Origin: Acholoe squamosa
Lineage: Eukaryota > Annelida > Polychaeta > Phyllodocida > Polynoidae
Direction: 5' to 3'
Assembly: GCA_949317995.1 (NCBI GenBank)
Contig: OX439036.1
Location: 92,851,920 to 92,915,919 of the forward strand
DNA length: 64,000 nt
Below the pieces are notes generated by a model. The model worked only from the letters and a program-made list of their open reading frames with translations. It was not told the DNA's origin and did not search any database. Positions 1,150-60,933 of the stretch are shown here, in pieces (position 1 is the stretch's first letter; every line of letters begins with the position of its first letter). A program made the position numbers and the translations under genes.

Positions 1150-1925
1150 CGTAAACTCTTTAAGGCTCTCAAACTGCTATATTGCATTTTGTATCTTGGC
1201 TTCTTCATGCATCATGACGACCTATCGATATTAATAGTGTCGCAAAAGGACTATGCACTTATGGCATTGATGCATTGCTGTTCGCGATTTACTTGCCTGC
1301 ACCTAAGGAATTAAGAAAAATGAAAGTTAATTTTGCTGAATTATATTGGCCTAAAGTGTTTAAGAGACTCATTGTTGAGTCCTCTTGTAAATTTTTATTA
1401 TGTTCCTGTGCCATATACCCCTACTGAATATACGGTATTCATATAGTCACGTTCACGTTGTACCTTCCCTTGTCATTTCTCTGTTCTTTGAGACCACCCC
1501 TTGGAAATGATATTCATACATACTACTGTTCCATATAATGGACTGTGGGGATGGGGTAGGTAAGATATTATTACCAGCATGATACATGAATGAATCATGT
1601 CGAGTAACTCTCTGTACTGCATCGATGCATCATGCATACTATCATAACCAGATCAATGCACTGCTGGTGATTAAGTTGTAGACATTGCATTGTTGCACCC
1701 CCGGATGCATCATTAGATCCCCAAGCTTTGATGCCGACCCTGAGGGGCTAAACTTCTAATTGCCCCATGGGGTCCCTGGATTCATGTTCATTTGTCACCT
1801 TGATGCTCCAGCTACCACTGCATTAGTGCACCATACGGCACCGACCCTCCAGGAGTGCCTCAAGCCTGTTGGGTCAGGATGATACCTAAATCGGCCGGGG
1901 CTGGACCCACTAACACTAAATCCTT
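1150..1925. repeat. Degraded family 1 MITE fragments
   Basis: Several broken pieces of the palindromic family: CTCTTTAAGG near 1158, CATGCATCATGACGACC near 1208, CTGCATCGATGCATCATGC near 1618, and CAATGCACTGCTGGTGA near 1654 followed by GCATTGTTGCAC. The TTAA-flanked ends are not preserved, so the boundaries are approximate and more than one insertion is probably merged. Confidence 0.5.
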
Positions 1926-2191
1926 TCATCACAATTGCAAATGGGGGGGGGGGGCAAAATGCATTGAACCGCGTTATTGCCCTTCAAAAGTTAGCTATAG
2001 ACCAGTATCTAGGTTAGTAGGCTGCTTATGATTTAGTAGAACGTTTTCTCCATAAACATCCATCTTTTTGGAGGGCAATATACTCTCCGAGTCTCTAATT
2101 TACCTGGTACAGTTTAATAAAGATATCCATACATCTGTGGTGGCCCCTTGAGGTAACTGCTACTGGCACTGGCTACCTTCCAATCAAATAA

Positions 2192-2415
2192 GTCTTTAAG
2201 AGATGCATAGTGCATTAATGAATCCGACCTTGGTCATCTTAAAGCATCTATGGACCTCTGGTGGGTTTATCAACAAAGAAAGTATCGTCCATCCTCTACG
2301 TGAATACAGTGTCTGACAATAGCGATACAGGGCTGCATCCATGCATCATAATGATAATTGGGTTTGGGGTATCAAAAGGGGTCATAATCGATTAAAGCAC
2401 TATGTTTTCTATAAA
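2192..2415. repeat. Family 1 MITE, partial
   Basis: Begins near CTTTAAGAGATGCATAGTGC and contains CAGGGCTGCATCCATGCATCAT (about 2329-2350), the right half of the second palindrome. The left palindrome is eroded. Confidence 0.5.
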
Positions 2416-2419
2416 GGGT

Positions 2420-5400
2420 TAATAACATACTATCTAGGGGACAATTAGGTAATTACCTACAGTCCCCATGTCTGCACATTACGGCTGATTAATGTGGTCC
2501 ATTATAAGATCCGTTGTAGTCCAGTCTGGGGGATAGGGGTAATTACTGCAACATCATGTCTATTACCTGGATTAAACTCTGTGCCACACATTATGTTCCC
2601 CTGATGAGACCAATGAAAAAGGTGCTTCAGGTTAACTACACCCCGATCATTGCCTTGTTTCTGAAGGTGTTGTCAATGATGACATTGCCCCCCATTGGTT
2701 CATGTGCATTAACAGTTACTGATGCTCTTACTAATCTTTTCTTTCTTTAAATCCCCTAAAACTACCGCAGAATTATTTACAAACCATCAGCCTTGGGCTT
2801 AACCATACTATTGACATGAATATTGACATGATATGTGGGGCTTGTAAGTGAAACTGAATTGACAAATTATTGGATAGAATTCAGATCTGCCTTGTTTTGC
2901 GTGGTTGTGTGGGGGCTGGGAAGATAATGACTACATTTATGCTGTCATAGACATATGTGACAAAACGTGGTAAAACGTAACAATACCTGATTACAGGGAA
3001 TAGTGTTATTCATGGCCACCAGGTAGCCCCAAAGTGATGCACATGGTATAACATCATAGATTGTCAGAGAACTTTCCCCGACATCTCCTTGTCAGATTTT
3101 GATGATTCACATACCAAAATGATCCCTAAAACCTCTTAATTTCAATTGTAACAGATATGGTTTGATGAGTTTATTGGATATTATCTTTCTCAACTAATTA
3201 CTCAAACCTGATAGACATACCTGAACTGAGAATATTACTATATCTGTCAACTTGCACAGTTTTTGGAATGATGACATGCTCATTTGTGCTGTAAAAGAAC
3301 TATATGCCCATTATTCAGGGTCTGTGAGTGTCCAAATATGTAGGAAGACCTATAGAAAGTATTCTGATAGATTACAGCAAACTTGCCCTCTTTTTTTATT
3401 TGGTCGTGCCACCTAGTTGCAGGGAATAACACTAAATCTCCATAATGTTGCTTCACATATCTCATGACACAGGACAAAATGATTTTCCGGTAACATGGCC
3501 AAAAAGCTTAGGTCGGTAGGTGAGATTGCCTTTTATCCCTTTTTTTCTTATTTTTTTTTCTTTTTTAAGTATCCGAGACCTCATCATAGTCATACCGCAG
3601 GAAATATGACAAAATTTTGTAAAATCTGTGAAGGAGGCCTATAGATTTCGAATAAAAAAATTGAAAAAAAAGGGATTTAAAAAGTTGAAAATATTTGAAG
3701 AAAAAGAAATCAGCAAAAATTGAAGTAAAAGAAGAAAAACATTCTGGCATCAACCTTCTTTAGCTGAGATCAGTCGGGTGACCGAAAACTTTTTTTTGGC
3801 CTTATTACAAATACGGTATATCGTGTTGTTTTCGATATAAGATTTATTGATTATGAAGGACAAGATTCTTGCCTTTTTTTACTCAAATGCGCTTTTTCAG
3901 GTCTGCACGTGTGGATTCATATTAGAAAATGCATCAAACAAAAGTATGCAGCATAAATTTTAGTCTTTGTTTATTTCAGCGCAGTGAGGACACAGGTGTT
4001 CAACATAATGGATACACATTCAGGTCCAAACCCTTAGCAGCTACTGTGATTCACCGTAATGTTATTCCCTGTATACAACACTCGTCAACACCTGTGCATT
4101 AATTTTACTGATATATTGAGCTATTTACTTTACAGTCCATAGAGTCAGGTAACTAGAGAATAATCTCACGGTCTACTAGGTAGGGAATGGGGTGTGAAAT
4201 GCTGGCTCTACATAATCTAGGGCAGATCTAGACCTTTAAGATCAGGGATCTATTTCAGAACAATTAACGATTTGGCCCTTATTGAGACTTTGTCCAATCA
4301 CAACCGTAAGATTTGTAAAATCATAATCGTTGTTTTTAACCGCACAATACAAAATCATACAGATTCCTGGACAAGGCCACAGACAATAAAATAAGTAGTG
4401 CTGTCATAAATATTACAGGCGTATTTTACAACCACCTTGTATAATTTGATTTGTCCAAGATAGTTGCTGATCGTCTCGAAGGCCTATTTCCTACAAACAT
4501 ATGAAAGTGGTAGTCGTAGAGCCATTTTGGTGAACGTTAATCATTTTGAAACATACCTCAGACTTAGTTCATCTAGCAGCGACTCCTTGTCCTTGAAACA
4601 TAGTTTGTGTAGGAACAATACCGTTCGTCATTTAGGCTTAACCCATGAAGAGGCAGAGTGTTCCAAATCAAAAAGATTTATCCGTTCGTCGGCATGATGC
4701 CTAAATGCAGTCTAGGAAGACAAGACTGAAGAGTTTGGTTAAAAAGCACAATAAACGCCATTTTGAAAAAAAGAGGCAAACATTTCAAATGCCTGCATGT
4801 TAGAGATGGTTATTTGTTACAAAGAACCCATTTTCTTTGAAAAATATAAATATAAAATTCCCTTCAGTGGAGCACTACAAACATGGGTATATGCTGGAAA
4901 TCTAGAAGGGATTTGTTGCGTTTTGGAACCAAACTCCTCGAAATCTGTGCAGCATCCATGCATCATTTCAATGGTGTTGGTTGATGCAGTGTCAGATGTT
5001 TGGCATAATGTACTTAGAGTAGGTTAAACTTAAGACAACCGCACACCTTGAGACGTCCAGCCAATAAAATCACCATTAATATAAGATTTTCTGATGGATC
5101 AACATTGCCAGTTAATGGAACCGATGCTCATCAACGATTTAGCCTTGTGATTCAAGAAGCAAAGCCGTATGTTATATATCAGGCACTACAGTAATATCGT
5201 ACCAGACAGTGACTCAATCACTCTCTCCCTTCACCTACTTGTCCCTTTTTAAGTTGCTATTATGAACACCTGAGTTGTCAATTAATATGACTTTTCATAA
5301 GCATATCAATGACATCTTTCCTTTGTCAATATAACGAATAATTATTTAGGTCTTCAAGGAGTGCTGACAACCCATATGTGTCTGCATTAAATGGGGACTT

Positions 5401-5924
5401 TCAATTGGCAGTGTTTTTTTTTGTGATTGACATCATAACGGCCAAGGAACATGAAACTGCAGGAATTATTCTACCCTGAGAGACCCAACTACCTGCCGCT
5501 AGATTTATAAAATGCTCCAGTTAATTACCTGGCCATGTGTACATCCGTGTAGCAAGATATGTTAACTTAATGATATTTAACTCTTGGTAAATGATGATGA
5601 AGAACTTGTATTCAGTAGGCAAACACAAGTCTGCCCATAATTTTAAGTGTCTGATTCATAAAGGGCTCTTTGAGCAAGGCTGAAGAGATATCGCTGAAGC
5701 ATCATAAAGTATGTCTTAACAACTACTAGGACACCATACTAATGCCATATATTTCCCATCTCGTAGAGTGCTGAAATAGAAGAATTGTCAGTTCTATATT
5801 GGTGAACAATGAAGAAGGATGTGTTTAAAATTGGGGGGAAATAATTTTAATTTTCCATGTTTCTCTCTAGTGGTTGACCCAGAGGACAATCACGTTTCTA
5901 TATGTTCCTATACAGATGGCCTCT
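2420..5924. other. Non-coding stretch with an A/T homopolymer block
   Basis: No supported gene. At 3500-3790 long T runs and then A-rich sequence lie between a GGTCGGTAGG block (about 3511) and a CAGTCGGGTGACCG block (about 3771). Similar blocks and A runs recur at 22.6-22.95 kb in the other orientation, so this is probably an old dispersed repeat. Open frames of 60-77 codons here (for example 4464-4697 and 4797-5027) show no recognisable domains. Confidence 0.5.
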
Positions 5925-6577
5925 GTCTCCGTGGGTGCCTACACTTAGACTATTGACGGCCAATGCCTGAAGACCCTAGATCACGTAAGTAGTACACTGT
6001 ATCTTGCATTTTGTACGATGTGCTGACATGCCCCTTCCTCCCCACCTTTAAACCTGTTAAACCTTTGAGGGAGTGACAATCAATCAGGAATGTGAGGGTT
6101 CGACCCCCATCTCCCCCCTCCCACGTGCACGTGAACAGACAATTCCAGGAGACATCCAGGGGAGGGATGAAGTCGCAGTAGGTATTATATTCTTAATATT
6201 CAAAATTTCATGTTCAAAATAAATTAAAATTAACACATTTTTCATCATCTGCCAATATACCTATGACTATTCCCTAGGCCTGAGTGTATGCATGTCCAAC
6301 AGCACTTCCTCTGTGAGAGTCTCTTGTGGGAAGGTAGACAAACCTTAGACACCACTTACAGACCCTAAAGTCTCTTTACACCCAGGCGTGGGTGATAATA
6401 GACTACAGTTCAACTCAGTCTCCCTATAGCCTCTTGAGGGCTACATCCTGCTTTAATGCATCATGTCTGCCGTGATGCTCGACTGGACCCTTTAGGGCTG
6501 CATTCATGCATCATACTCACCCTTTAAAATAGGTAAAACCCAGAGCCTAGTGCAATGCATGATTGCAGCCCTGATTA
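5925..6577. repeat. 653-bp tandem duplication, copy 1
   Basis: First of two adjacent 653-bp copies. Reading through both, I find one clear difference (CCCAGGCGTGGG here, CCCAGGTGTGGG in copy 2). The junction has five bases of shared sequence, GTCTC, at the start of each copy and just after the second. The unit contains anonymous sequence plus part of a family 1 MITE near its right end (about 6450-6577). It encodes nothing recognisable. Confidence 0.93.
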
Positions 6578-7230
6578 GTCTCCGTGGGTGCCTACACTTA
6601 GACTATTGACGGCCAATGCCTGAAGACCCTAGATCACGTAAGTAGTACACTGTATCTTGCATTTTGTACGATGTGCTGACATGCCCCTTCCTCCCCACCT
6701 TTAAACCTGTTAAACCTTTGAGGGAGTGACAATCAATCAGGAATGTGAGGGTTCGACCCCCATCTCCCCCCTCCCACGTGCACGTGAACAGACAATTCCA
6801 GGAGACATCCAGGGGAGGGATGAAGTCGCAGTAGGTATTATATTCTTAATATTCAAAATTTCATGTTCAAAATAAATTAAAATTAACACATTTTTCATCA
6901 TCTGCCAATATACCTATGACTATTCCCTAGGCCTGAGTGTATGCATGTCCAACAGCACTTCCTCTGTGAGAGTCTCTTGTGGGAAGGTAGACAAACCTTA
7001 GACACCACTTACAGACCCTAAAGTCTCTTTACACCCAGGTGTGGGTGATAATAGACTACAGTTCAACTCAGTCTCCCTATAGCCTCTTGAGGGCTACATC
7101 CTGCTTTAATGCATCATGTCTGCCGTGATGCTCGACTGGACCCTTTAGGGCTGCATTCATGCATCATACTCACCCTTTAAAATAGGTAAAACCCAGAGCC
7201 TAGTGCAATGCATGATTGCAGCCCTGATTA
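6578..7230. repeat. 653-bp tandem duplication, copy 2
   Basis: Second copy, exactly 653 bp downstream of the first and almost identical. After its end the sequence runs on with GTCTCACAAGG, which completes the MITE palindrome cut by the duplication breakpoint. This copy therefore retains the original right flank. Confidence 0.93.
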
Positions 7231-7640
7231 GTCTCACAAGGTCTGGATGCATGCATCAAGGCGACAAAAATACATTTAAACATCAATCCTTGATACCTCC
7301 CTTTAAATAGTTGTATTAACAATCCCAGGCCCGTGGTTGAGTAGGTACAGCACAGACCCCCACATCCGGGCATTTTCCGAAAAGGAAGAGCCGTATTTAA
7401 AAGACAAACATCCGGGTACCCAGAAGACACTTGAACGCGGCACGAACGCAGCTCCTGCCCTGCTTCCAGGAACGCAGGGTACAGACACTGTCTTTGACGT
7501 AAGGCGTCACAATATGCAATACTCTCTGCTCCCTCCCTTCCCGGCATTAACCATTCACTTACTGCATGATACCTTAGTTTACTCAGCCCATTTGTCATTT
7601 TGATGCCTGAATGCAGCCCCGGTGTCCCACCAACGATTGC
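7190..7640. repeat. Family 1 MITE pieces right of the duplication
   Basis: CAATGCATGATTGCAGCCCTGA, then CTCACAAGGTCTGGATGCATGCATCAAGGCGAC, is a palindrome of family 1 (about 7205-7265). A second piece, TGATGCCTGAATGCAGCCCCGG (about 7601-7622) followed by ATTGCATGCATAATGGCC, lies just before the inverted-repeat segment. The sequence between them is anonymous. Confidence 0.55.
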
Positions 7641-7649
7641 ATGCATAAT

Positions 7650-9690
7650 GGCCTCTGTGAGTCTCAAAAAGCCCCTATCCCTCAAAATTTTGTGTGATAG
7701 GGGACATACGTTTGAGACTTAGGGTCCACCTAGAGCCCCTAGCCTACAACAAGTCCCTATCCTACAAAATTTTGAGATAAAGAGACTAAGTCCAAATGGC
7801 CTCTTTTCACAAATATTTGTTAGATAGGGGCCATTTATGGGTTAGGGACATGTCAGGCTCCTATGTTTCAAAAAGTCATTATCTCTCAAAACCCCTAACT
7901 TTCAAAATGATTTAACCAAAGTTAGGGTGTGCAGCTGGTATGGGGTTGCAAATTAGAGGTGCATACCCACTTCTGTGTCTAAAACAAAGACCCCCCCCCT
8001 TACCAAAGAAAGTTGAAAAAAAAAGAAAAAAATCATGTCATGCCCCCTCTGGGACTTTGATGTGACTCATAAAACTAACCATGGACCAGTAACAACAATA
8101 ACTGTTGGTATCCCTGCTATATATCAGACTGCTATACATATGGTTTGCAGGATCCTTAAATATGTAAGGCATTTCTCTTTCACATTTATGCTTTAAGTAG
8201 TAGTTGAGACTCAATTAAAGTACCTACATTTAGGCACGGATGTACTAAATGTCGTTATTTCAAAATATCATCAACTTTATGAAGGCTTGAATCACTTTTG
8301 CATATCAGGCAAACAGAAAACAATCTTATATATAACAGCTGTTTCTCCTGTTCTGCTAGAAAAGACATCTTTATGACTCTGGGCAATTCACCCAAAGATA
8401 ACCTTACCCCTGACTTTAGGGTTAGATTCCAGTTCCTTCTGTCGACCCCACCAACCTTTCCACACCCTGTTGGTCATGGTGGGAGGGGGTTTCTCTCGTA
8501 GTCACAGATACGGCTGGGTGATATCTGACCTTCAGAGAAATTTGAGCAGAAAAGCAGAGAGGGGACCCCATCCTCCCTCTCATCGACTACCATTTCATGT
8601 TGCCTACTCACACGTATCCATGATCAGAGTACTGGTGAGAGTACTGGTGAGCATCTAAAGCACTGTTGGATACTTACATGTATGTATGTGGACAGAGCAA
8701 CTTTACACACACATACACATGTACTTCAGGCCAGGATATGATATGGGAAGGTCATACAGGGAAATGGACCTGAGGGAATGACATAGACAGGTTGTAAAGT
8801 GCCTCACAGAGATCAGAGAATGACATGGAGAGGTTAAACAGACACATGTAGAGACCAGGGAATGGCATGGGGAGGTTATACCAGGAAATGACCAGCAAAT
8901 GACATGAGAAGGTCATACAGGGCTGAGAAAGACCAGGGAATAAGCAGGGAATTACATGGGGAGGCCATATAGGGGCTGATAGAGACCAGGGAATGACATG
9001 GGAAGGTCGTATAGGGCTGAGAAAGACCAGGGAATGACATGGGGAGGCTATAAAGGGCTTACAATGAATAGGGAATGACATGGGAAGGCTGTACAGTTGA
9101 TTAGAAAGACAAGGAATTACATGGGGAGGTCATGCAGGAGCTGAAAGAGACCAGTGATGACATGGTAGGGCCATACAGGGGCTGAGACAGACCAGGGAAT
9201 AACATGGGGAGGTCATACAGGGGCTTAGAGACATGGAGAGGTGAAACAGGGACATAATATAGAGACCAGGGAATGACATGGGGAGGTCATACAGGGAATG
9301 GCAGGGACCAGGGAATGACATGGGTTGGTCGTACAGGGACTGACAGGAGCCAGGGAATTACATCAAGCAATGTCACTAACAACCATTTTCTTACTGTCTG
9401 CATATTTTTTAGGGTATGGTTAGGGCACATACAATTCTTTTTTTTCTGAACACGGAAATTATCAATCATGTATGGTTTACTCTGCTTTCATCTTGAGAAT
9501 TATGAAATATTTGCAGTAATGTCATGCATTGATTGCTCACCATGACCATGGAGCCTTTACTATTTTACAAGCTGTCTGGCAGTGTGGACTCTATAGTTAA
9601 CAAATCACAATACTTGTTTCATTCATTTGAAATCTTTTATATCATTTATGACGATTTTGAGGGATAGGGTTTTTTTGAGACTTAGAGGCC
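7650..9690. mobile_element. Candidate 2.0-kb inverted-repeat element carrying a minisatellite
   Basis: GGCCTCTGTGAGTCTCAAAA at 7650, continuing to a CCCTATCCCTCAAAA block, recurs in inverted form at about 9653-9690. The match is about 36-40 bp with a 2-bp gap and a few mismatches. Just inside the left end, two more versions of the CCCTATCC..CAAAA motif occur (about 7752-7780 and 7868-7895), resembling subterminal repeats of DNA transposons. The interior holds anonymous sequence and the minisatellite at 8.73-9.36 kb, with no transposase frame, so any element would be non-autonomous. I found no clear target-site duplication, which keeps the call tentative. Confidence 0.5.
8732..9363. repeat. 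~41-bp minisatellite, about 15 units
   Basis: Diverged tandem repeats with a consensus like GACCAGGGAATGACATGGGG plus AGGTCATACAGGGGCTGAGA. Units vary in length and several carry internal gaps. The apparent minus-strand open frames (MSFPGL.-type repeats at 8752-9081, 9130-9321 and 9287-9469) are translations of this repeat and are not genes. Confidence 0.9.
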
Positions 9691-9714
9691 TCACAGCCTC
9701 CCCCTGGCGATGGT

Positions 9715-10090
9715 ACACACCCGGATGGTCTATGACTTGTGATATAAGACTAGTGCATGCTCAGGATCACCATGGCTGAATTGATGCATCATGACCAAAA
9801 TGGTGCCTAGACACAGGGGGTCCTATGTTCCTTGTCGATTTTAAGAATTGGATTTTTATCAGTGGTCGACATTACCGATGAGCATGAGCAATAAGGCCTT
9901 GACCATTTAAATGTCGATACTGCACCAATGCATTATACTCAGCGGTTAGGCATGATGCATCGATGCAGCCCCGGCACGTGGATCAACCCTTTTCGGACAG
10001 CAAAAATATGCTATGCCTTTCTTGCCATCATGCATTATTTCAAATCATTCATCAGTAGTGCACTAACTTATACATAGCATCACACCTCTA
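9715..10090. repeat. Family 1 MITE fragments
   Basis: Contains TTGATGCATCATGACCAAAA (about 9781), CACCAATGCATTATACTC (about 9923) and GGCATGATGCATCGATGCAG (about 9949). The palindromes are recognisable but the ends are not preserved, so two overlapping copies may be present. Confidence 0.5.
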
Positions 10091-10308: not shown

Positions 10309-10511
10309 TTAAACCTGCAAGGCTGTATGGTGGCAGGTCGATATGATGCACCAATGCAGTTCTGGTGATTCTATTCGCCAGTACTGTATTGGTGGATCGT
10401 ACCTATACTATCCTCTGTGAGTGTCTCGATGCGGTTAGACGGCGTTAAGACTCACCAGGGCTGCATTTGTGCATCATTAGGACCAATCCTCTAGTGCAAT
10501 ATATAAAGGGT
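10309..10511. repeat. Family 1 MITE, nearly full length
   Basis: Both palindromes can be read: ATGATGCACCAATGCAG..CTGGTGA with CGCCAGTACTGTATTGGTGG (about 10344-10396), then a TCTGTGAGTG spacer, then CTCACCAGGGCTGCATTTGTGCATCAT (about 10452-10478). The right end is ATAAAGGG followed by TTAA. The left end is not clear. Confidence 0.7.
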
Positions 10512-10642
10512 TAATGTAAAACAAGTGTATTTATAAGAGGATGTATTCTTCCCATTGCCTACCTACTCTCAATGGAATTCAAATCTAAATGGACTTTCTG
10601 ATACTTATCGTTTTACTCATTCCCCATCTAATGTGGGCTTCA

Positions 10643-10775: not shown

Positions 10776-10909
10776 CAGGCCTGGCAGCGATTGTTTACCT
10801 CCGGCCATTATTTGTGTAATCCTCTTCCCAGAACTGTGTTCAAAGCATACTAAAGGTGGCTGAATATTTATCGTGCAAAATACGAAACCGTTCTAAGGAG
10901 ATGGTTTCA

Positions 10910-11680
10910 GCCCTCGTAGAGTGACCATGATTGTGTAAATGCAGCCCTGGTTACTGGGCCTTGCCATCATACAAATCTACAATGTTCTTGGAGTTTCACA
11001 ATTTCGCTATTTTCACAATAGCATATGTGACATGATCTGCGGAAATGGGGCTTAGTGCAGGGGGTTCTAAGACCCCTTCTCCCAGTACATGTCGCATATT
11101 TTGATAACCTTTATATCAAATAAAAAGATTCTGGCATGGTTATTGAGATATTCGCCCATATGGAGGAGACCAGCAGGTTTATCTGATGCATCTGACGATT
11201 GTCCAAATGTACCAGGTGCTGTATTGTCTAGGCATAGGGTTTACAAAAGTGTTGTTATACTGAAGTACTCACCATCATTATAGTCTACGAAACGTTTGTA
11301 AATCCGTTCAGAAGAAAGAGCATCTAAATGTATCTTATCAATGCCATCAAAGAACAATCGAGATGAACATTGTATTTTGCCCAATGGTGACGTCATCAGA
11401 TCCATCAGATATGTCTGCTGCTCTCCGCTATGATAATAGATATTTCACAAACTATACCTAAGCCTTTTTATTTAATATATAAATGCTATGAAAACAGGGT
11501 GTTGTTCCCCTTTACCATATTAGCCCCCCTCCCTTACTAGGGAAGAAAATAGGACAAAAAGATGGATGTGCAGCATTGTTTAACTTAAGGGGGAATTCTG
11601 TCTCTTATGTCTGATTTATAAATGACATGGCGGCACCTGACTGATGTGTCTAGCCCTGTAAAGGCAGACTAGTGAACCGA
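10910..11680. other. Mostly anonymous sequence
   Basis: A short family 1 remnant (TGTGTAAATGCAGCCCTGG at about 10931-10949) is the only recognisable item. The open frame 11089-11283 has no domain signal and a GTG/ATG choice that means little in this setting. Confidence 0.4.
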
Positions 11681-11682
11681 GG

Positions 11683-11910
11683 TCCATGGCCCTTTATGAC
11701 CGTGATGCACCAATGCACTGATACCTCTAGACTCAACCAGTGCGCCGTACCAGCTATATAGGGAGTGTATCAAGTGTATCAATCAACCAAATACGATTGT
11801 CATGATGTATGAATGCAGCACTGTCAAGTAACTCGTCAGGGCTGCATTCAAGCATCATGACGACCAATCGGCATTCTATGATAATACAATATGCAGTATT
11901 TAAAGTATTT
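11683..11910. repeat. Family 1 MITE, both palindromes visible
   Basis: GTGATGCACCAATGCACTG (about 11703) starts the first palindrome. The second is well kept: CATGATGTATGAATGCAGCACTG, AAGTAACTCGTCAGGGCTGC, then ATTCAAGCATCATGACGACC (about 11799-11865). The terminal CCCTTTA is present near 11689. The right end is eroded. Confidence 0.65.
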
Positions 11911-12642
11911 ATGGCCACCAGGCAAACACATGATCTGTAGGTAAGTGTATCCATGTCTCCCACGCGTGTACTCCTTGTCCTCAGGTAACCGAGTTAGGGT
12001 TCAGTAGAAGTGGTTAATCCTCACGAGGTTGGCCACAAAAATGTATCATTCTATGACACTATTTCATCTCTCTAAATAAAAGTCTCTATTTGAGGAAAAT
12101 ATCATAAATCGAGTAGTTAGTGTTCCTTTGGTCAGAGAATGTATATATGCACATATTAAAAAGATCAAAGTAATTCAGCCATCTCTAAACTTCATTTTTC
12201 TTGTCAAATTTTGGCAAAACTCCACACTATCGACTACTTTGAGAATGTGTTTGCATCCACCTATATCTTCACCTCTAATCAGCTGATCTATAGGTTTCTG
12301 GTTGAGTATGCAAAGGGTTCAAATCATTCACGAAGTAGATAATGGCAGTGACTATATATCGTCTAACCTTATAAGGTCTCAGAGACAACCAACGGAGGTT
12401 CAATGCATGCAGTAAGCTGTGATCATGCACCTTGCCGAGAAGAGGCCATCGTGCCTCCATTTTATAGTGCATATTAGGTGTTTGGGCAAGAAAACAAATG
12501 TTTACTTTCATGACAGCCAGCTAGGTTTTTGATATTTTCCTAATAGAAATTTCAAATCATATTTAGATAGCAATTTGAAAAGCACACTACTTCGATAAAG
12601 ACGCGCCCTATTTAGATTGTAGAAGTCAAAGTATACCCTTAA

Positions 12643-12870
12643 CCCTTTAAGGGTTATAGCGTGCATTAATTCACAAGGGACCATGGTTATCATTATACGT
12701 TGTGCAACTCAGGCGGGATACTCGCCAGGCGTTTGCTCATGTTCTGCTCATGCCAACTGTCCAGGGGCTTATCTTCCCCGTAGAGCCGACCCAGTGGTTA
12801 GATGTATTCTGAATGAGTTCCTCACTATATGGTTCTATTTCATGCATCAAGAGGACCAAAGAGTATATTG
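12643..12870. repeat. Family 1 MITE with TTAA-CCCTTTAAGGG left end
   Basis: TTAA (12639-12642) is followed by CCCTTTAAGGG, the family terminus. Inside, CAGGCGGGATACTCGCCAGGCG keeps the GAGT/ACTC hinge of the palindrome and a CATGCATCAAGAGGACC block ends it. Much of the interior has diverged. The open frame at 12683-12919 crosses this repeat and is not supported as a gene. Confidence 0.55.
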
Positions 12871-13087
12871 CCTAAATTTTGCTTTCGCCATAATGACACC
12901 GATGTGTGCTTTTAGTTGATTTACCTCCTTAGTTGTACTGACACATTGGTTGGTGTCTATGGGTGGTCAATAGTGCACATCCCGATAGCCTCAAGGGTGG
13001 CTGTGAACACCCAGGCACGACCACAACACTTGGGTCTCCTTCCCGAAACCCATACATTATCAATACCTGCCACAATTGCCAATACAT

Positions 13088-16108: not shown

Positions 16109-16112
16109 TTAA

Positions 16113-16314
16113 CCCTTTAGATGCTGCATGATACCTCCCGGCATCATGATGCACCAATGCATCGTTGGCTAGTCTACCTACCAGCACTGCATTGGTGCAT
16201 CATGCCGATACTACTAGGGTATACAAGGGACAGCATGAGTTGATTCGCCAGGGCTGCATTCCTGAATTAGGACAACCAATTGATATAGTAAAGTACTATG
16301 CGGCCATTAAAAGG
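16113..16314. repeat. Family 1 MITE, clean copy with TTAA on both sides
   Basis: This 202-bp copy defines the family. It is flanked by TTAA at 16109-16112 and 16315-16318 and starts CCCTTTAGATGCTGCATGAT. The first palindrome is ATGATGCACCAATGCA...TGCATTGGTGCATCAT (about 16146-16204). A CCGATACTACTAGGGTATAC spacer follows, then the right half of the second palindrome, CGCCAGGGCTGCATTCCTGA. It ends GCGGCCATTAAAAGG. TTAA target duplication together with a CCCTTT-type terminus is the pattern of piggyBac-type transposons. No transposase is present. Assignment to piggyBac is inference from these ends. Confidence 0.8.
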
Positions 16315-16420
16315 TTAAGTCCATCTTTAGTGGTTATTGTTTTTCTATATTTCCATCGGTCATAGTACTACGACGTACAATGGTATGGTAGAGGCCCTAG
16401 GGGGGCAATAGAGGGGCCTG

Positions 16421-18671: not shown

Positions 18672-18779
18672 TGCTTTGCTGACTTTGTAATGATTGATCT
18701 TTTCAACCTTGTGGCGTGCAGGGAAAGATAGGCATGATGCAGAAATTGGCAGGCTGCCTTGATGTAGAAACACATTGTT

Positions 18780-18860
18780 GAAGAGGTATTAGGCGCCACT
18801 GCATTGATACGTTATGGCGCCTTGAGGTATCATGGCATCCTAAAAGGCTTAACATTTCAT
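18780..18860. repeat. Family 1 MITE remnant
   Basis: GGCGCCACTGCATTGATACGTTATGGCGCC (about 18792-18821) keeps the TGCATTGATGC-type arm. The rest is eroded. Confidence 0.4.
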
Positions 18861-19094
18861 TATAAGGTTCACTTTAAAAGGACTGCACACGTGCTTGTGC
18901 AAAATGGTTTATGCTGTTGCGGGACATAGTTTACGCTGTCAAAATAAAATAAGAATTATGACCACTACAAACAAGAAGTACATACCTCAATCATAATATA
19001 AACTGCAACAAAGAGGAAAAAATCTGAAGGGCCATTGTGATTGTGTGTTGGGAGGGAAGAAGTGATGTTTTACTGTTGACCTTTCATGGGCTGA

Positions 19095-19312
19095 ATAGCA
19101 CTTTCAGCATTATGCCCTTGGACATCATGATGCATAGATGCAGTCCCAGTTAGCAACTAGCCAGTCCTGCATTTATGCATCATGCTGGCCCTATTGGGTT
19201 GATACACTCCCAAAAGGGTCTGCATGATGCACAAATGCAGTACTGAGGATTGACATGCCAGCACTGCATTGATGCATTATGACAAGAGGAGAACATTCCC
19301 CTGAAGGCATCT
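19095..19312. repeat. Family 1 MITE with both palindromes
   Basis: Second-type palindrome first: CATGATGCATAGATGCAGTCC, then CTAGCCAGTCCTGCATTTATGCATCATG (about 19127-19180). Next comes the TTGATACACTCCCAAAAGGG spacer, and then CATGATGCACAAATGCAGTAC with GCCAGCACTGCATTGATGCATTATG (about 19221-19281). The order and the spacer agree with the copies at 20.9 and 57.5 kb, which supports a two-hairpin design. Confidence 0.75.
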
Positions 19313-19607
19313 CAAAGAGAAAAGGCTCTTTATTTGAGTAATGTGGTTGAACTCTGCCCCTGCTGTGGGTGATGGGGCAGATCTGTTTAGTTTGGATCCT
19401 CGTAAAATGCGTGGGCAGCTAGAGCACGCTGCTCGTTACACCAACTGCTGTCAGTGGTGGCTGTACCACCATCATTTTATTTTCTTTCAAGTCCTTTCAG
19501 AACTCTACCATTCCTTTTAAGTTTAACTCTGATTATTACCATGATGAAATCCTGGTGGGTATTCTCTCGCGCTGAATTGACCAGTACATTCCACAGAAAA
19601 GTTTTGA

Positions 19608-38815: not shown

Positions 38816-38817
38816 CT

Positions 38818-42500: not shown

Positions 42501-42600
42501 ATCCTTTAAGGGTTGTAATTAATAGTTGTTAAGATGCATGATTGCAGTACTGGCAAGAAGCTGCTGTGCTCTGCATTCTTGCATCATGACTCAAGTAGGC
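42501..42600. repeat. Family 1 MITE, left part
   Basis: Starts TCCTTTAAGGGTTG. GATGCATGATTGCAGTACTGG and GTGCTCTGCATTCTTGCATCATGAC form the palindrome. Confidence 0.6.
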
Positions 42601-42777
42601 TGATACACAAACAATTTACATGTACAAATACATCACTTAGAATCTATTCCCTGACACCAACGAGCCAGTACTTATAAATCAGTAAATCAGTGCATCCTGA
42701 ACACCAGGTCTTAAGGCATACCATTCAAGTCTTATCCATCATAATATTATAACCATCGCCCTCACAACGTCATTTAG

Positions 42778-46196: not shown

Positions 46197-46960
46197 CTTA
46201 TCAATGAGAAATAGGCATTCTCCTTGGTGCATAATCAAGACTAATTCCCATGTTTGACCAGCTTTTAGTGTATCAATTAATACTTTTTGTCACCTCTATA
46301 TATACCCATTCAAGACCGGTGCTCATTCAAAACTTGCCCCTTAAACAGGTGATCGTGATATGCTGTCCTGTATGTTTATGAATAAGGATCAGCATTTAGA
46401 GATTCAGAGGATTACCCTAGGACACGCATTATATTCAAGGCGGGAAAGCACCATTCAGAACATCTGAAAAGGAAAGGAATGAGTATCTTCTGATCAGATA
46501 TCACACAATTCCATGAGGTGCATGTGCGGCGGGACATTAAATCAATCAACTGTTCAGCATTTATGCTATTATACCACATAGGCTCCGACACTAGACTCGG
46601 CACTATTCAAACACAAATTCCTAGCGTTCTTTTCTATTTTATTATCACTACAGGCCCTACCCTCAATTTATTGAGGTGTTCATTCAAAGACCCGGGTCTT
46701 ACGAAACCCTATTCAGACACCCAATCTTGGGGCAGTTGTAAAGTTGTCTAGTGGCAAAAACTGACTAGTCAAAGGGACCCCATCAAATCTGTACTTGATG
46801 TAAAAGATTTTTATGGTTTAATTTCCTCTTCTGTTCACCTGATTTAGTTGATGTGATGTACAGCAAATGCAACCCAAATGAATCTGCTTACAAGAGCCAT
46901 ATTTCTCCATAATGCCTACCATTTTAAAATGCAATATCTACAACAGCTTTGCATGTTCCA
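46197..46960. other. Non-coding stretch right of the minisatellite
   Basis: No gene or recognised repeat. Confidence 0.4.
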
Positions 46961-46964
46961 TACA

Positions 46965-47064
46965 AATGATTTAATGCAGCCTTAGCGACTGTACTTGCAC
47001 CATGCATCATAACAGAAAAGACCTACCATAATGGTTACATTTATAAAGAAGCCCTTAAAGGGCT
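46965..47064. repeat. Family 1 MITE, right part
   Basis: GATTTAATGCAGCCTTAGCGACTGTACTTGCACCATGCATCATAAC, ending GCCCTTAAAGGGC. Confidence 0.55.
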
Positions 47065-47069: not shown

Positions 47070-49908
47070 ATCCAGGGGTCCTCCAGGTGGAGGACATGAA
47101 AAGTGCACTCACTGCTAGACATTTCTTTACCTAGTAATAAATCTTCATGGCAACGATTTGGGTTCAATCCAACAATATATCAATCCTCCCTTGCAATAAA
47201 ATCACAATTAACCAGTTGTAAGCCATCTGTAAAGTGTTTCCAGTCTGATTCTGAAAGCTTGCAGCATAGGGGTTTGTCCCCTTTTCAGGAAAACTAGGTG
47301 GAGTGATTACGGACCAGCTTTGCTGTCTTGTTCATGGGGGCAGCGCCCTCCAATCTTTACACACTCCATCTTTACCTTTGAAAAGACCCAGTCCGCGCAT
47401 ATTTGACCAACATTCAGGTCTCGATGCTCCGGCAAAACTTGGTTGTGAATCATCTGGTTAAGTAAATCAGGTTCACTGTAGAATTGTATGGTTGTAATCA
47501 AGTGTAAATGAGCCGATCGATGTAGCTGTAAATGAGTCAATCGATGTGTTAAAGATAGATCAATATTTGACAGTATATGCTCTTTGGTTGTTAATGTGCC
47601 TTTATGAATGCAGCCCGAAGAGACTACCCGTCAAGGCTACATTCCTACAAATCCTGATCCTACAGATGTGATGATACCAATAAGCTGCGACTTGACATTA
47701 ATCTTGGAAACGAGTGGACACTTAGCACAGAGTTTTTTGCATGATTGACAGCATTCCCTCAGATATGTGCGTATTGCCTATTTAATCTGACCAGCCACTG
47801 AGTGCTTCCCAAATGACTGATTAGCACGCTTGCTAACCACTTTGGCTGGCGACCTGCCTCTATGTTGGGGACATCATAGGGGCAGGCCATGTCTAATAAG
47901 TTACCAGTCAATAATCCCCTGTTTTAACCCTTACTCACAAGAGGGCACCCTAACAGACCGATGGTCTACCTGTCTCTCCTATACAGATGTTTGGATATAG
48001 TCTGTGATTGGAGAATAGTAATGCTCCCATCTAGTGAAGTTCATGAGTACTTCTCCCCATGATCTGGGAAGAATGTCACCAGACATGGCCAGCTGGTATC
48101 ATGCTCTCAAATACCTGCAGGGTTCAGTGTAGCTAACCACTGAGGCAACTACTAGTAAGTGCTGGCGTTGTATGTGGTTGCCCTGTGTAGCTCTCAAAGG
48201 GTTAGAACCAACGTTTGCCCTGCAGTGATACTCCATGCAGGGCACTCTATCAGAATCAGACCTATTAAATGTACATAATGGTGACATAATAGGTCAGAGA
48301 TTTACATACCAATGCTCATGGTGTTGCAGGTATATGTATTTTAGTGGTAGATCTATCATCCTATACAGAACGACCATAATACTGTTTTGGATTTGGAAAA
48401 GGTAACTTCGCTTGAACCGTCCACAGAGATATTTTGTTCTATTTGCGATCGCACATCCAACTGTAGATCCAGTGGCCCAGCGGTGCTTAAAGATAAAAAA
48501 GATAGTAAAGTACAGAAAAAAAAGATGGACTGTGTTAACTATATCTTTCTATCTATCTTACTTAGAAAGCAAGCCACAACCAGAAAATGTCTCCTGACGT
48601 AAACATTTCAAAACTGACCCATCATGGATCACTACAAATGGTTATACTAGCCTCCTTGATATTCGCTACTCGTAACCTAATCTCAGACCTTTAGACTGGT
48701 GATGGACATTTTGGGCACTTTTGAATTTGAAATTAAACTGCAAGGAGCTTTTTTTTCGGATGGGAAGATGGTCCTGTTTTGGCAGTAATTTATGACAATG
48801 TTGCGAATGGATGTCAATATCTTGGTTCCAACCAGCGAAGTGCAATGCATTCTGGACTAGGTGGGACACCCAAACTCATAATATAATAGGTATTATATGA
48901 GCCAAAATGGGCAGAGGAAAGGCTCGTAAACGTTTGGCTAGAAGTTTGAATGGCCAGCCATTAAATGTGCAAGTTTTTATATTTAACTACACCGTCTCCA
49001 TAGGACATGGCCTGCAGAAGTCAGACAATTGCTTGCCCAACGAAACATACATATATTCCATTTCAGTTGATAGGGTGAATTACAGCTGCTGATTGGTTCT
49101 ATTTATAGGTATCGGTGGGCAAACAGACCAGTGCACTGAATTGACCTCTTGCTACATTTATGGTACAAGGACTATGCCTCATTCAGCGACATAGTATACA
49201 CATAATATATTACTTCCTTACAAATAACATGTAGAATTTAAAGGTGCCTTGTAGGTATCTATTTAACAAATGTTATTTGATGAAGTTATATGTTATAGAG
49301 ACTCCTACGTTTGGTGCATACCTGGCCATTTGAAGGCAATGTTTTCCCACAGCTAACCACCCCGTGAAGTGCAATAGCGTCCATTTAAGAGAGGGATGTG
49401 AATTGTTTACCAGTTCCTTGTGGTTTATACTGGCGCCATGGCAAGAAGACCATTGATTGTATAATTGACCCAATTGAAGGCAAAACAAGCAGACAGAGAA
49501 ATTTATATCGCCTGCTCCAGTCACCAGATACTCACGTCTGCTGCTGTCTGTCGGATATGTTGGGGCCATTCGACTGGAACTTAGTGTGAGTATTGATCTT
49601 CCTGATGCACTAACTCTGGCATGGCTCTATTGGTGTATTATGACAAATTAATATAATAGGAAAAAACTTGGGGGATCATTCAGGACAAAGGATACAAATT
49701 GATAAGTCATTTGAGGCCATTTTGATTGTGAGATTTAGAAGAAAATAATTTAGATGAAAATGAAGTGTAGCAGCGTTCGAGCCCTCGCCGAACGGTCCCA
49801 CTTCCCTTCAGACTCACTGATATTAAGGGGGTTCAAGGGCACCTTGGTTGGTTTGTTTCCTCACAAGAGACCATTGTTATAGTGTATAGTGCACCCCATC
49901 ACCTGTGT
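47070..49908. other. Non-coding stretch
   Basis: Weak family 1 traces occur at 47600-47660 (GAATGCAGCCC..GTCAAGGCTACATTC). CGTTCGAGCCCTCGCCGAACG at about 49771 is a small hairpin. No supported gene. Open frames of 60-98 codons (48387-48602, 48907-49092 and 49273-49569) have no recognisable domains. Confidence 0.4.
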
Positions 49909-50105: not shown

Positions 50106-50118
50106 ACCTCCACCCTGT

Positions 50119-50300
50119 AAGGACCCCATGATGCCTTCAGGTTCCCATGTTGTCATGATGCACCAATCCCGACGCTTTGCGGTTGAGTCCATTCTGTGGT
50201 TTTAGCCCTTTGGTGGATGCAGCACTGGAAACTAGAATCACCAGGGCTGTATTCATGCATCATGATAACAAATGGACACAGTATGAAATAGTATGTTAAA
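50119..50300. repeat. Family 1 MITE, internally damaged
   Basis: GACCCCATGATGCCTTCAGG, GTCATGATGCACCAATCC, GGATGCAGCACTGG and CACCAGGGCTGTATTCATGCATCATGATAAC follow in the family order. The start overlaps the retroposon's right flank. Confidence 0.6.
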
Positions 50301-50319
50301 GCTTCATGTGGTCCCCTTT

Positions 50320-52313: not shown

Positions 52314-52317
52314 TTAA

Positions 52318-52545
52318 CCCAAGGTGTCATGTCCCTTGGTCGGCATGAGGGCCCAATGCAGACTGGGCGTTTAATAATCGCCAGTTCTGCAGTTTTGCAT
52401 CATTCCGCTCCGTCCAGGGCGTCAGAACCCCTTATATATGGTGGCCCTAAATGCAGTACTGACGATGCACTTGTCAGGCCTGCATCCATGCATCGTGTCG
52501 ACCAAAAGGCATTTATAATAATCGCACTATTTGGCCCCCAAAGGG
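52318..52545. repeat. Family 1 MITE, near full length with TTAA left flank
   Basis: TTAA at 52314-52317, then CCCAAGGTGTCATGTCCC. First palindrome GGGCCCAATGCAGACTGGGCG..ATCGCCAGTTCTGCAGTTTTGCATCATT. Second palindrome AAATGCAGTACTGACGATGC..CTTGTCAGGCCTGCATCCATGCATC. The right end is GCCCCCAAAGGGATAAA. Confidence 0.7.
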
Positions 52546-53209
52546 ATAAAGGGGTGTGAGGTGAGCTTGTGTGGCAGTGGAGCAGGAGAAAATAGAGGGT
52601 GGTGGCCCCCGCACAGTCACAGCATGTATTGTTGTGGGTGCTATACTGATACATTCTGGGGGTGTTTTGTACATGACTTTAGTGCATGACCTTGGTTGGA
52701 TTTATTCATGGAAGTGCCTGATTCACATAGTAGATTCACACGGTTTTATAGCATGAGAAGCATTGTTACATGTGCATAGGATATAGCCTATCCATATCGC
52801 TACTTGGGATGCCAATCCGCCAGAAATAGCTGCAATGGTGTGTTTTATTTTGTTTGTTTGTTTATATGTGTGTGTGTTGTTGTAGTCATTGTTGTTGCTT
52901 ACATCTTTAAATGCTAGGTTAATCAGTTTTTGCTGCGACCATCACGGTCCCCTTCTTCTAAAAATAGGCCTACATTGAATGATCTTGCATTCTGTGTCAG
53001 ATTGTACTAGCATCCCCCCGGGCCTGGGCCACTTAGATTTAAAATACGACGTTTTCTTCTCTCTCTCACTGTTGTGGACGTTAAACCACAGCACTTCAAT
53101 CGTGACGACCTCTCCCCTCCCCCAGACATACCGATGTGATTTAACACTTTCTACATTGTCATGATTTCTTTTGATGATTTATTTGTGCTAGTCTGCATGG
53201 GTGGCTTAT

Positions 53210-54650: not shown

Positions 54651-54879
54651 AACCATCACAATACAATTCATCTCAGCTATGCTGAGCTTAACTCAAAATA
54701 TATATTTCCTTAATATATCAAATGTATACACTCCTCCTTGTAGGTGATACTTTATCCTCTCACCTCTTACAAACAAGAGTATTAGCCAGAGATGCAGCCC
54801 TAAGCATCTAGTGTCATCAACTGGGTCTTCCTAAAGTACTATACTATTCACTGAGGGTATTTTAATAGTGTGCATCTAC

Positions 54880-55000
54880 TTCACATGACTGCACATATAC
54901 ATCATGCTGACACTGTGGGCATGATTCATTAATGTAGTGATTCAATGACTGGCATGATGCACTCTATTACAATCGATCGGCCATAACATCTGTGATGTAC
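54880..55000. repeat. Family 1 MITE remnant
   Basis: CACATATACATCATGCTGAC and GACTGGCATGATGCACTCTA are worn arms. Confidence 0.35.
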
Positions 55001-57069: not shown

Positions 57070-57660
57070 TGAAATATAGCCCTTAGCACGCCATGAAAGC
57101 TCAAAGCCATGTTTCACTATGATACACCAATGCAGCAATGGTGGCTGGAATTGCATAAATTGAAATTTATGAAATTTAGGCTAAGCATTTATGACTTTAT
57201 CAACAGAACAGGGTCGGCATGATGCATGAATGTAGCCTATGATACATATCTCAAATAAGAAAAGAACATCGTGTATGAAGTACGGTGTGGTCTATGAAAG
57301 GCTAAGACATGGGAAGTGGGGCAGGGTGAATTCTCACATGGCTCCAGTAGTGGGTATGATGGGTGCATGGTGCTCCATGGCACGCACAGGTGTGTATCTA
57401 GATCTCTAAGTGTTGCACAAGGCAATATAGCCTCGAGTCGTCATGATGCATGAATGCAGCCCTGATGAGCAACTCACCAGCGCTGTATTCATGTATAATA
57501 AACTCCCAGTGCTGAGTGCATACACTATACCATCCCAACAGGACTGGCATACTCCCACAGGGGTGGCATGATACTACGCTGTGCTGATGAGTATATTAGG
57601 CTGCGTTGCATTGGCGCATCATGTAAACCATGGAGTATGAACCTGGAGGCAAGGGTTAGC
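57070..57660. repeat. Two family 1 MITEs in series
   Basis: First: CACTATGATACACCAATGCAGCAATGG (about 57115) and GGCATGATGCATGAATGTAGCC (about 57216). Second: CATGATGCATGAATGCAGCC, CTGATGAGCAACTCACCAGC, GCTGTATTCATGTATAA (about 57442-57500), a spacer with GGCATACTCCCACAGGGGTG, and a second hairpin ending TGCATTGGCGCATCATG (about 57607-57623). Confidence 0.65.
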
Positions 57661-60289: not shown

Positions 60290-60382
60290 CATGGTATAAA
60301 GTCTACTAGCCCTCTATCAGCAGATTTCATATAGGCTTTGTATGGCTCATTCGCGCGATAGATGCTAAGTGGAATATGGCCT
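60290..60382 (-). repeat. Family B MITE, worn copy
   Basis: ATGGTATAAAGTCTACTAGCCCTC...GCGCGATAGATGCTAAGTGGAATATGG keeps the family layout with mutated ends. The interior TTTGTATGGCTCATTCGCGC matches the reversed copies at 41.7 and 56.1 kb. Confidence 0.65.
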
Positions 60383-60399
60383 TAAATCCATATACCATG

Positions 60400-60490
60400 C
60401 TGGCCCTATGTAGTTGATTAATACACAACCAAAGGTGAAATGGTACATTGTAACGATAATTGAACTTTGAAGCATCATGACATTCATGAA
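60400..60490. repeat. Family 1 MITE remnant
   Basis: CCATGCTGGCCCTATGTAGTTGATTAATACAC and AAGCATCATGACATTCATGAAG: spacer and arm traces only. Confidence 0.35.
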
Positions 60491-60707
60491 GTCTTACAAA
60501 GGGGCATATGATGGTTTTGTGGATGTGGGAGGCGCCATTACAAGTATGTGGCCAGAGCGTGCTCAAAGGGGAGAACATAGAAAGAAGAGAAGAGAAAAGT
60601 GTCATAATGTCAGAGTGTAAAGTGTCCAAATGCTCTTGGTGAACCCTAGCTGGATCTATTTCCAAAGATTTAGTACCTGAGGAGTGGAGGAGGTGCACAG
60701 TATGCTA

Positions 60708-60933
60708 ACCCTTTAAGGATTACATAGTGCAACAATGGATCATATCCAAATTCCTTTTTATCTGAATGCATAATTATTATGCTACCCCGGCGAGTAACTC
60801 TTGCCACGTACCGACCCCACAGAATTGATACATACCTGCACTGTCAGCATACTACCCTATGCAGTTGCATTTCCGTGTGGAATTGATACACTATGATACA
60901 GACCTAGAAGGAATCATTTGGCCCTTAAAGGGT
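60708..60933. repeat. Family 1 MITE with both termini
   Basis: ACCCTTTAAGGATTACATAGTGC at the left and CATTTGGCCCTTAAAGGGT at the right give clear inverted termini, 226 bp apart. The palindromes have decayed (CCCCGGCGAGTAACTCTTGCC remains). The flanks no longer match. Confidence 0.7.

What the first reader, a model, noticed from the sequence alone, without database searches (positions are those of the whole stretch)
1150..60933. One palindromic TTAA-flanked MITE family dominates the window
About 35 whole or partial copies share CCCTTTAA/TTAAAGGG ends. The clearest copies (16113-16314 and 24163-24411) have TTAA on both sides, and several others have it on one side. TTAA plus a CCC-starting terminus is the piggyBac habit. 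I do not recognise this family, and its density here (about one per 2 kb) is exceptional for a single MITE.
Basis: partly seen in the sequence, partly recalled or inferred. Interest (0 to 1): 0.75.

Follow-up and report, generated by a model that had tools for sequence, protein, structure and literature searches.

The report
Dense old palindromic piggyBac-type MITE family
The window is packed with decayed copies of one small, non-coding jumping element built almost wholly of mirror-image DNA; its ends and target site are those of the piggyBac class, and some of its mirror sequences sit where piggyBac enzymes are known to grip their DNA.

Summary
Confirmed and extended. The window (1.48-Gb genome, 18 large contigs) holds 48 loci of one palindromic repeat, 13.9% of its bases; 0 hits in 10 dinucleotide shuffles. 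Thirty better copies elsewhere give a 258-bp consensus: TTAA, CCCTTTAAGGGC..., ~60-bp inverted ends, two internal hairpins and a central one. With TTAA outside the model, ends abut exact TTAA at 33/80 left and 33/73 right, background 0.0057: a TTAA-targeting, CCCTTT-ended MITE, i.e. piggyBac type; Kolobok ends do not fit. No coding parent with these ends was found, but the genome has piggyBac transposase frames inside TTAACCC-ended elements. New points: (1) both ends carry TGATGCA-4-TGCATCA at bp 16-33, centre 24.5, where published piggyBac (bp 17-33) and piggyBat (bp 19-30) ends bind the transposase's cysteine-rich domain; 3 of 8 of the genome's own piggyBac ends tested share that centre, 5 do not. 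(2) Density is regional: 38 of the 40 scored copies lie in the outer fifths of chromosomes. (3) Window copies average 33% divergence. A new family of a known kind, as far as tested, with an unusual all-palindrome design.

The parts
16109..16318 (.). most complete copy in the window, TTAA on both sides, hairpin P1 recognisable, P2 decayed
   Evidence: fold z -5.24
24159..24415 (.). copy with TTAA on both sides (one extra base before CCC); (AT)n stretch inside
31957..32231 (.). full-ended copy, TTAA left, TTGA right
25891..26127 (.). full-ended copy, GTAA left, TTAA right
34551..34796 (.). full-ended decayed copy
12639..12877 (.). copy with left TTAACCCTTTAAGGG
27087..27317 (.). copy with left TTAACCCTGTAAG
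60705..60936 (.). copy with CTAACCCTTTAAGG ... CCCTTAAAGGGTAG
19079..19310 (.). best-scoring window copy with the window-trained model, both hairpins recognisable
22213..22444 (.). near-full copy, both hairpins
11651..11905 (.). near-full copy
57404..57651 (.). near-full copy
38816..39046 (.). near-full copy
20935..21175 (.). near-full copy
52317..52548 (.). near-full copy
7080..7306 (.). copy inside a local tandem duplication
6427..6591 (.). duplicate of the copy at 7080
10315..10513 (.). copy with right end AAAGGGTTAA
10642..10782 (.). partial copy
50112..50314 (.). copy
20538..20705 (.). partial copy
2190..2421 (.). copy, right end AAAGGGTTAA
1571..1993 (.). two adjoining decayed copies
19493..19733 (.). 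copy, right end AAAGGGTTAA
15679..15924 (.). copy
27458..27662 (.). copy
57077..57304 (.). copy
23809..23978 (.). partial copy, right end AAAGGGTTA
26787..26998 (.). copy
46844..47064 (.). copy
21264..21487 (.). copy
21626..21806 (.). partial copy
7548..7675 (.). partial copy
42494..42637 (.). partial copy
41177..41294 (.). partial copy
9897..9983 (.). fragment
9690..9828 (.). fragment
24705..24880 (.). fragment
47571..47684 (.). fragment
18724..18847 (.). fragment
54872..54962 (.). fragment
36669..36745 (.). fragment
36764..36818 (.). fragment
39240..39320 (.). fragment
4653..4716 (.). fragment
4945..5013 (.). fragment
10898..10953 (.). fragment
1204..1302 (.). fragment (lowest score of the 48)

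Best explanation
A non-autonomous DNA transposon (MITE) of piggyBac type, about 250 bp between TTAA target sites, that was cut and pasted into TTAA by piggyBac transposases supplied in trans and is now decaying. Shown: TTAA flanks, CCCTTTAAGGGC tips, ~60-bp inverted ends, dispersed copies with differing flanks, a genome with piggyBac transposase genes. Inferred: that a piggyBac enzyme moved it, and that it never coded for protein (it is too short to hold a transposase). The tip-proximal palindrome (TGATGCA-4-TGCATCA, bp 16-33, centre 24.5, at both ends) is most likely the binding site of the dimeric cysteine-rich domain (CRD) of the transposase, and the internal palindromes, which repeat the same TGATGCA half-site (8 in all), are extra or expanded copies of that site that would raise transposase loading. 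My likelihoods: piggyBac-type MITE 0.93; tip palindrome is the CRD site 0.6; internal palindromes act as extra CRD sites 0.35.
For: Boundary: with TTAA outside the model, the four flanking positions are 71-82% (left) and 73-86% (right) TTAA, and composition is close to background from -5 and +5 outward, with a slight T/C bias at -5 and -6; exact TTAA at 33/80 left and 33/73 right against 0.0057. Consensus folds as an inverted-end stem plus three hairpins; one genome copy z -17.5, one window copy z -5.24. PF13843 finds 90 matches in the genome, best 1e-88; L009 has a 470-codon frame matching piggyBat (9c0f, E 2.9e-59, aligned through the cysteine-rich C-terminus) and T. ni piggyBac (6x67, E 2.6e-28), inside a TTAACCC-ended element. 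Palindrome position: MITE right end 9/10 pairs and left end 7/10 pairs at centre 24.5; L013 R 9/10, L011 7/10, L009 L 7/10 at the same centre (each P about 0.01 or less against shuffles). Published: a CRD dimer binds a palindrome at LE bp 17-33 of piggyBac, and an added CRD site about doubled integration (PMC7351741, passages); piggyBat palindrome bp 19-30, three such palindromes on its left end (PMC11707139, passages). TGATGCA half-site columns are better conserved than other non-CpG columns (0.874 versus 0.811, P 7e-5, 96 copies).
Against: No autonomous element with the MITE's own ends was found (0 of 30 PF13843 loci, 1.5-kb flanks, for most of which no TTAACCC end pair was seen). Five of 8 piggyBac ends of this genome lack a palindrome at 24.5: L009 R, L010 L, L010 R, L013 L, L012; L013 and L011 are one element family, so the three that fit are two families. 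L009 has nested TTAACCC at both ends; the fit uses the outer one, and the inner one would put its palindrome 9 bp nearer the tip. Both MITE ends are of one type, whereas T. ni piggyBac with two left ends is inactive in cells with the native enzyme, though weakly active with hyPBase (PMC7351741). The innermost palindrome site restricts, not helps, piggyBat (PMC11707139). The MITE is so rich in palindromes that one near bp 25 is not very improbable, and I read the papers after seeing it. Much of the hairpin arms, not only the half-sites, is well conserved. No empty site was found.
Confidence: 0.85

Rival explanations
1. A MITE of another TTAA-targeting superfamily (Kolobok, or Sola3, the latter recalled).
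For: The TTAA target is shared (PMC6004289, passages). This genome was not searched for Kolobok or Sola3 transposases.
Against: Kolobok ends in AGGRR; here the first bases inside TTAA are CCCTTT, the piggyBac hallmark (PMC10813416; PMC2872659). The AAGGG further in lies inside the conserved block, not at its edge.
Confidence: 0.05
2. The palindromes are kept for DNA or RNA structure (cruciform, hairpin small RNAs), not as protein sites.
For: Strong fold; pair counts exceed shuffles a little: two-sided changes in 57 cells versus 41.6 mean (1 of 500 shuffles as high), covariation score 0.121 versus 0.107 (0 of 500), though pairs with a two-sided change, 28, do not stand out (124 of 500).
Against: One-sided changes far outnumber two-sided changes that keep a Watson-Crick pair (727 versus 55 of 3,876 cells), as expected of neutral decay; relatedness and subfamilies inflate such counts, and arm-to-arm conversion can mimic them.
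Confidence: 0.2
3. The palindromes are only a relic of how the element arose (inverted duplication and template switching) and have no role.
For: The element is an inverted duplicate of one half (85% identical to its own reverse complement).
Against: The first palindrome lies at the piggyBac CRD-site distance at both ends, as in 3 of 8 tested ends of the genome's own piggyBac elements; half-site columns are better conserved.
Confidence: 0.3
4. Local tandem or segmental amplification, not transposition, explains the density here.
For: One local tandem duplication in the window; MITE-derived satellites exist elsewhere.
Against: Neighbouring window loci are spaced as at random (gap CV 1.04, 48 loci) and only 4 of 108 neighbouring pairs in all held DNA lie within 30 bp; the flanks of the 30 aligned genome copies differ.
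Confidence: 0.04

Closest known systems
CMITE families of Acropora corals (Wang et al. 2010, PMC2872659; parts 1 and 3 of 4 of the text, and passages)
   Same: TTAA target, CCCTTT ends in several families (family II CCCTTTAAGCCCTA), conserved internal region, tandem arrays, piggyBac elements in the host
   Different: about 100 bp against about 250; the 60-bp CMITE core has no similarity to this consensus (score 14 versus shuffle mean 14.2); the word palindrome does not occur in that paper
piggyBac of Trichoplusia ni and piggyBat of Myotis (PMC7351741, PMC11707139; passages read)
   Same: TTAA target, palindromic CRD site centred 24.5-25 bp from the tip of the left end
   Different: they encode the transposase and have asymmetric ends; the MITE has the palindrome at the same place at both ends and repeats its half-site inside
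T2-MITEs of Xenopus (Kolobok; PMC6004289, passages and abstract start read)
   Same: TTAA target, very long-lived MITE families
   Different: AGGRR ends, another superfamily

Membership tests
piggyBac superfamily (non-autonomous) | TTAA target site duplicated on both sides | tested here: met
   33/80 left and 33/73 right ends exact, 0.0057 background; both sides exact in 11 of 41 full-ended copies (there the model holds part of TTAA)
piggyBac superfamily (non-autonomous) | termini starting CCC, commonly CCCTT | tested here: met
   positions 1-5: C 76, C 89, C 89, T 86, T 85 percent of 80 left ends
piggyBac superfamily (non-autonomous) | palindromic CRD-binding repeat near bp 17-33 of at least one end (known for two elements from the papers read) | tested here: met
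   centre 24.5 at both MITE ends; binding itself not tested
piggyBac superfamily (non-autonomous) | autonomous element with the same ends encoding PF13843 | tested here: inconclusive
   0 of 30 loci share the ends, flanks too short for many
piggyBac superfamily (non-autonomous) | seamless excision to a single TTAA | tested here: inconclusive
   joined flanks of 41 copies against the held DNA gave no clean empty site; excision itself is not testable here
MITE | short, inverted ends, many dispersed copies | tested here: met
   258-bp consensus, ~60-bp inverted ends; the 40 scored copies (of 3,512 first-look candidates) lie on 16 contigs
Kolobok | AGGRR / RR terminus inside TTAA | tested here: not met
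CMITE | conserved 60-bp internal core | tested here: not met

The most novel reading that the evidence does not exclude
The element is a natural transposase magnet: a MITE whose whole length is arrayed piggyBac CRD-site palindromes (eight TGATGCA half-sites), which let two like ends do what T. ni piggyBac does only with unlike ends, and drove a long-lived amplification now concentrated in chromosome arms; its end unit was further copied into head-to-tail satellites of TTAA-tipped, end-like repeats near piggyBac genes.
Probability: 0.2. Interest if true: 0.75.

Novelty: new variant of a known kind. Interest (0 to 1): 0.5.

Why it matters
It gives a simple, testable idea of what makes a piggyBac MITE successful: like ends with the CRD palindrome at the fixed distance, plus repeats of the half-site. 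piggyBac is a widely used gene-delivery tool whose need for asymmetric ends is called enigmatic in print (PMC7351741, passage), so a family that spread with like ends is a natural experiment. The bias of one old family to chromosome arms, not seen for the genome's PF13843 loci, may mark chromosome-scale compartments.

Tried and rejected
BLASTN self-comparison of the window hardly showed the family; profile models did. Rfam (gathering thresholds) and tRNA searches found only two tRNA-like repeats. Kolobok origin rejected by the terminus. Homology to coral CMITE rejected. An empty-site test with joined flanks gave three hits, each in the locus itself beside other MITE sequence, and no clean empty site. 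Naming the host failed: the search for a sperm-lysin family did not complete; 'gastropod such as abalone or top shell', from chromosome number and size, is recall and guess. A genome-wide count by pattern did not complete, and the distal-arm sampling planned to test the positional bias did not run. Literature: ten searches of the held library, of which I saw the listed rows only (lists were cut, e.g. 20 of 44 and 10 of 46) and passages or parts of five papers; nothing listed describes this element. Four of its motifs were sought as letters: one occurs, in one unrelated bacterial paper. Repbase and Dfam are not available here, so 'unnamed' is not shown.
Full report
What is there. The window lies at G000:C2:92851920-92915919 of a 1.48-Gb genome in 63 contigs, 18 of which hold 99.8% of the bases. 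It has two reverse-transcriptase reading frames (PF00078; non-LTR type is my inference), a 47-bp minisatellite at 43795-46190 and two tRNA-Ser-like repeats. BLASTN of the window against itself hardly shows the reported family, because copies are very diverged. A 30-bp module, consensus TCACCAGGGCTGCATTCATGCATCATGACG, gave 57 hits at E<0.01 against 0 in the reversed sequence. Seeding a full-length model and iterating gave 93 both-strand hits at E<0.001; the reversed control had one hit at E 6.2 in the first round and none at E<10 later. The union of three models is 48 merged loci, 8,885 bp, 13.9% of the window, with 0 hits in 10 dinucleotide shuffles with two of the models. Hits come on both strands because the element is itself nearly palindromic.

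Consensus. A genome search with a window-derived consensus scored 40 of 3,512 first-look candidates; the best is 84% identical over 240 bases. Thirty were fetched and aligned. CTCGCCAGCACTTCATTGGTGCATCATG CCGACCCTC...CCCTATAGGGTCGG CATGATGCATGAATGCAGCCCTGGTGAGTTACTCACCAGGGCTGCATTCATGCATCATG ACGACCAATGGG CATGATGCATTAATGCATCA GCGG CCCTTAAAGGG TTAA (258 bp). Its two halves are inverted copies (85% identity between the sequence and its own reverse complement), its outer 60 bp pair fully, and the predicted fold is a stem with three hairpins. The majority consensus of 34 copies chosen as full-ended, also 258 bp, differs mainly in the spacer of the left tip palindrome (GGAG for TTAA), which leaves two bases on each side of the end stem unpaired. 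A real copy, L052:1501-1762, folds at z -17.5; the window copy 16109-16318 at z -5.24.

Ends. With the TTAA kept out of the model, 80 left and 73 right ends in all held DNA (window plus L001-L090) abut exact TTAA in 33 and 33 cases; the background frequency of TTAA is 0.0057. The four positions are 71-82% TTAA on the left and 73-86% on the right; beyond them composition is close to background, with a slight T/C bias at -5 and -6. In the window that model reaches only 14 left and 11 right tips, with exact TTAA at 2 and 2; by direct reading at least 5 left and 6 right window ends have TTAA. With the model that contains part of TTAA, 41 full-ended copies have TTAA on the left in 22, on the right in 19, on both in 11, on either in 30. 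For copies this diverged, that fits an ancestral TTAA at every insertion (inference).

Superfamily. CCCTT is the most conserved terminal motif, and TTAA the usual target, in a survey of piggyBac elements in small animal genomes (PMC10813416, passages); CC[C/T]T is named as the piggyBac hallmark in the coral MITE paper (PMC2872659). Kolobok, which also targets TTAA, ends in AGGRR (PMC6004289, passages). The genome has 90 PF13843 matches, which I grouped by hand into 38 loci. L009 holds a 470-codon frame, lacking the first 23 profile positions, that matches piggyBat (E 2.9e-59, aligned through its cysteine-rich C-terminus) and T. ni piggyBac (E 2.6e-28). L009, L010 and L013 have TTAACCC...GGGTTAA end pairs. 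None of 30 loci has the MITE's ends, but for most of them no end pair was seen within the 1.5-kb flanks, so the parent question is open. I did not search for transposases of other TTAA superfamilies.

Why palindromes. In T. [quoted passage not shown] adding a further CRD site about doubled integration (PMC7351741, passages). In piggyBat the palindrome is at bp 19-30 and occurs three times on the left end, the innermost site restricting activity (PMC11707139, passages). In the MITE the first palindrome, TGATGCA-4-TGCATCA, occupies bp 16-33 at both ends, centre 24.5. Of eight ends of this genome's own piggyBac elements, L013 R, L011 and L009 L also have a palindrome centred at 24.5 (7-9 of 10 pairs, each P about 0.01 or less against shuffles); L009 R, L010 L, L010 R, L013 L and L012 do not; L010 L has one at 54.0. 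L011 and L013 are one family, so the agreement in this genome is two element families; and L009 has nested TTAACCC at both ends, of which I used the outer. I looked at the papers after seeing the palindrome, so this is a fit, not a blind prediction. The half-site TGATGCA occurs eight times; its columns are better conserved than other non-CpG columns across 96 copies (0.874 against 0.811; P 7e-5; neighbouring columns are not independent), but much of the hairpin arms is also well conserved, and the tips stand at 0.869. Pair counting on 34 copies shows a small excess of two-sided changes (57 cells, shuffles 41.6, 1 of 500 as high; pairs with such a change do not stand out, 124 of 500), while one-sided changes dominate (727 against 55 two-sided Watson-Crick changes). 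I read this as decay after insertion, with constraint mainly on the source elements (inference).

Age and place. Mean divergence from consensus is 13% in the 34 full-ended copies, 23% in copies of the other held loci and 33% in window copies (alignments of 120 columns or more, both strands counted). The consensus was built from the best copies, which overstates the age of older subfamilies. Density is regional: 0.64 per kb in the window and 0.61 in flanks of 30 other MITE loci, but 0.05 in 20 systematic 2-kb samples and 0.08 around 30 piggyBac loci. Of the 40 scored copies, 38 lie in the outer 20% at either chromosome end and 1 in the central 40%; for 39 places (window itself left out) 25 and 2; for 38 PF13843 loci 10 and 14. 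In loci not chosen for the MITE (28 piggyBac loci after dropping overlapping L025 and L036, plus 20 samples) there are 4 in 23.8 kb of distal and 3 in 114.6 kb of central DNA (P 0.02). L011 and L012 were counted as zero there because their matches are tandem arrays; counting them makes 5 central and P 0.053; a 0.7-kb overlap of L016 and L024 was not removed. The positional lists hold best-scoring copies only and may be biased to young ones, and the planned distal sampling did not run, so the arm bias is well indicated, not mapped. From these 7 hits in 138 kb, a rough genome total is tens of thousands of copies and fragments (inference, wide error). Within the window the spacing is as at random (CV 1.04) and close neighbours are rare (4 of 108 gaps at 30 bp or less), so repeated independent insertion is the better account.

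Satellites. Within about 1.3 kb of two piggyBac transposase genes (L069, L070) lie arrays of a 38-bp unit (about 29 and 10 copies), TTAACCCTTTATGGATGGCATGATGCATTGATGCACA, and in L070 a 99-bp unit (3 copies); both match the MITE far above shuffles (45 against a 95% point of 18, 62 against 20). The 38-bp unit is in effect a row of MITE-like ends, each with its TTAA; which came first is not known.

Verdict. None of the rows listed by ten searches of the held papers describes it (listed under Tried and rejected), but Dfam and Repbase were not available.

Noticed in passing
L069:3-1082 and L070:4884-5274: Tandem arrays of a 38-bp unit made of TTAACCCTTTA plus a TGATGCA palindrome, i.e. head-to-tail MITE-like ends, near two piggyBac transposase genes of different end type.
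   Followed up: partly
L070:5331-5635: 99-bp tandem repeat containing the MITE hairpin P1: a second MITE-derived satellite.
   Followed up: partly
L069:1091-2222, L070:161-1347, L070:6752-7027: A 42-bp satellite (TGTCAGTAATTACTCACTATT half-units) lies near both piggyBac loci; no clear relation to the MITE (P 0.14).
   Followed up: no
window 43795-46190: Minisatellite of 47-bp units with 60-bp variants, C-rich on the + strand; no similarity to the MITE.
   Followed up: no
window 13238-13308 and 13745-13816: Two tRNA-Ser(CGA)-like sequences in similar ~250-bp repeats, perhaps a tRNA-derived SINE.
   Followed up: no
window 18004-18702 and 59111-59545: Reverse-transcriptase reading frames (PF00078); non-LTR type is inferred.
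   Followed up: no
window 50317-51102: A local cluster of repeats with inverted arms around CCCATAGTCCAC, not part of the MITE.
   Followed up: no
window 8880-9363: 41-52-bp tandem repeat with CAGGGAATGACATGGGGAGGTCATACAGGG.
   Followed up: no
L009:1417-2829 and L010:1528-2790: piggyBac transposase frames of 470 and 420 aa, cysteine-rich tail by eye; the L009 protein matches piggyBat better than T. ni piggyBac.
   Followed up: partly
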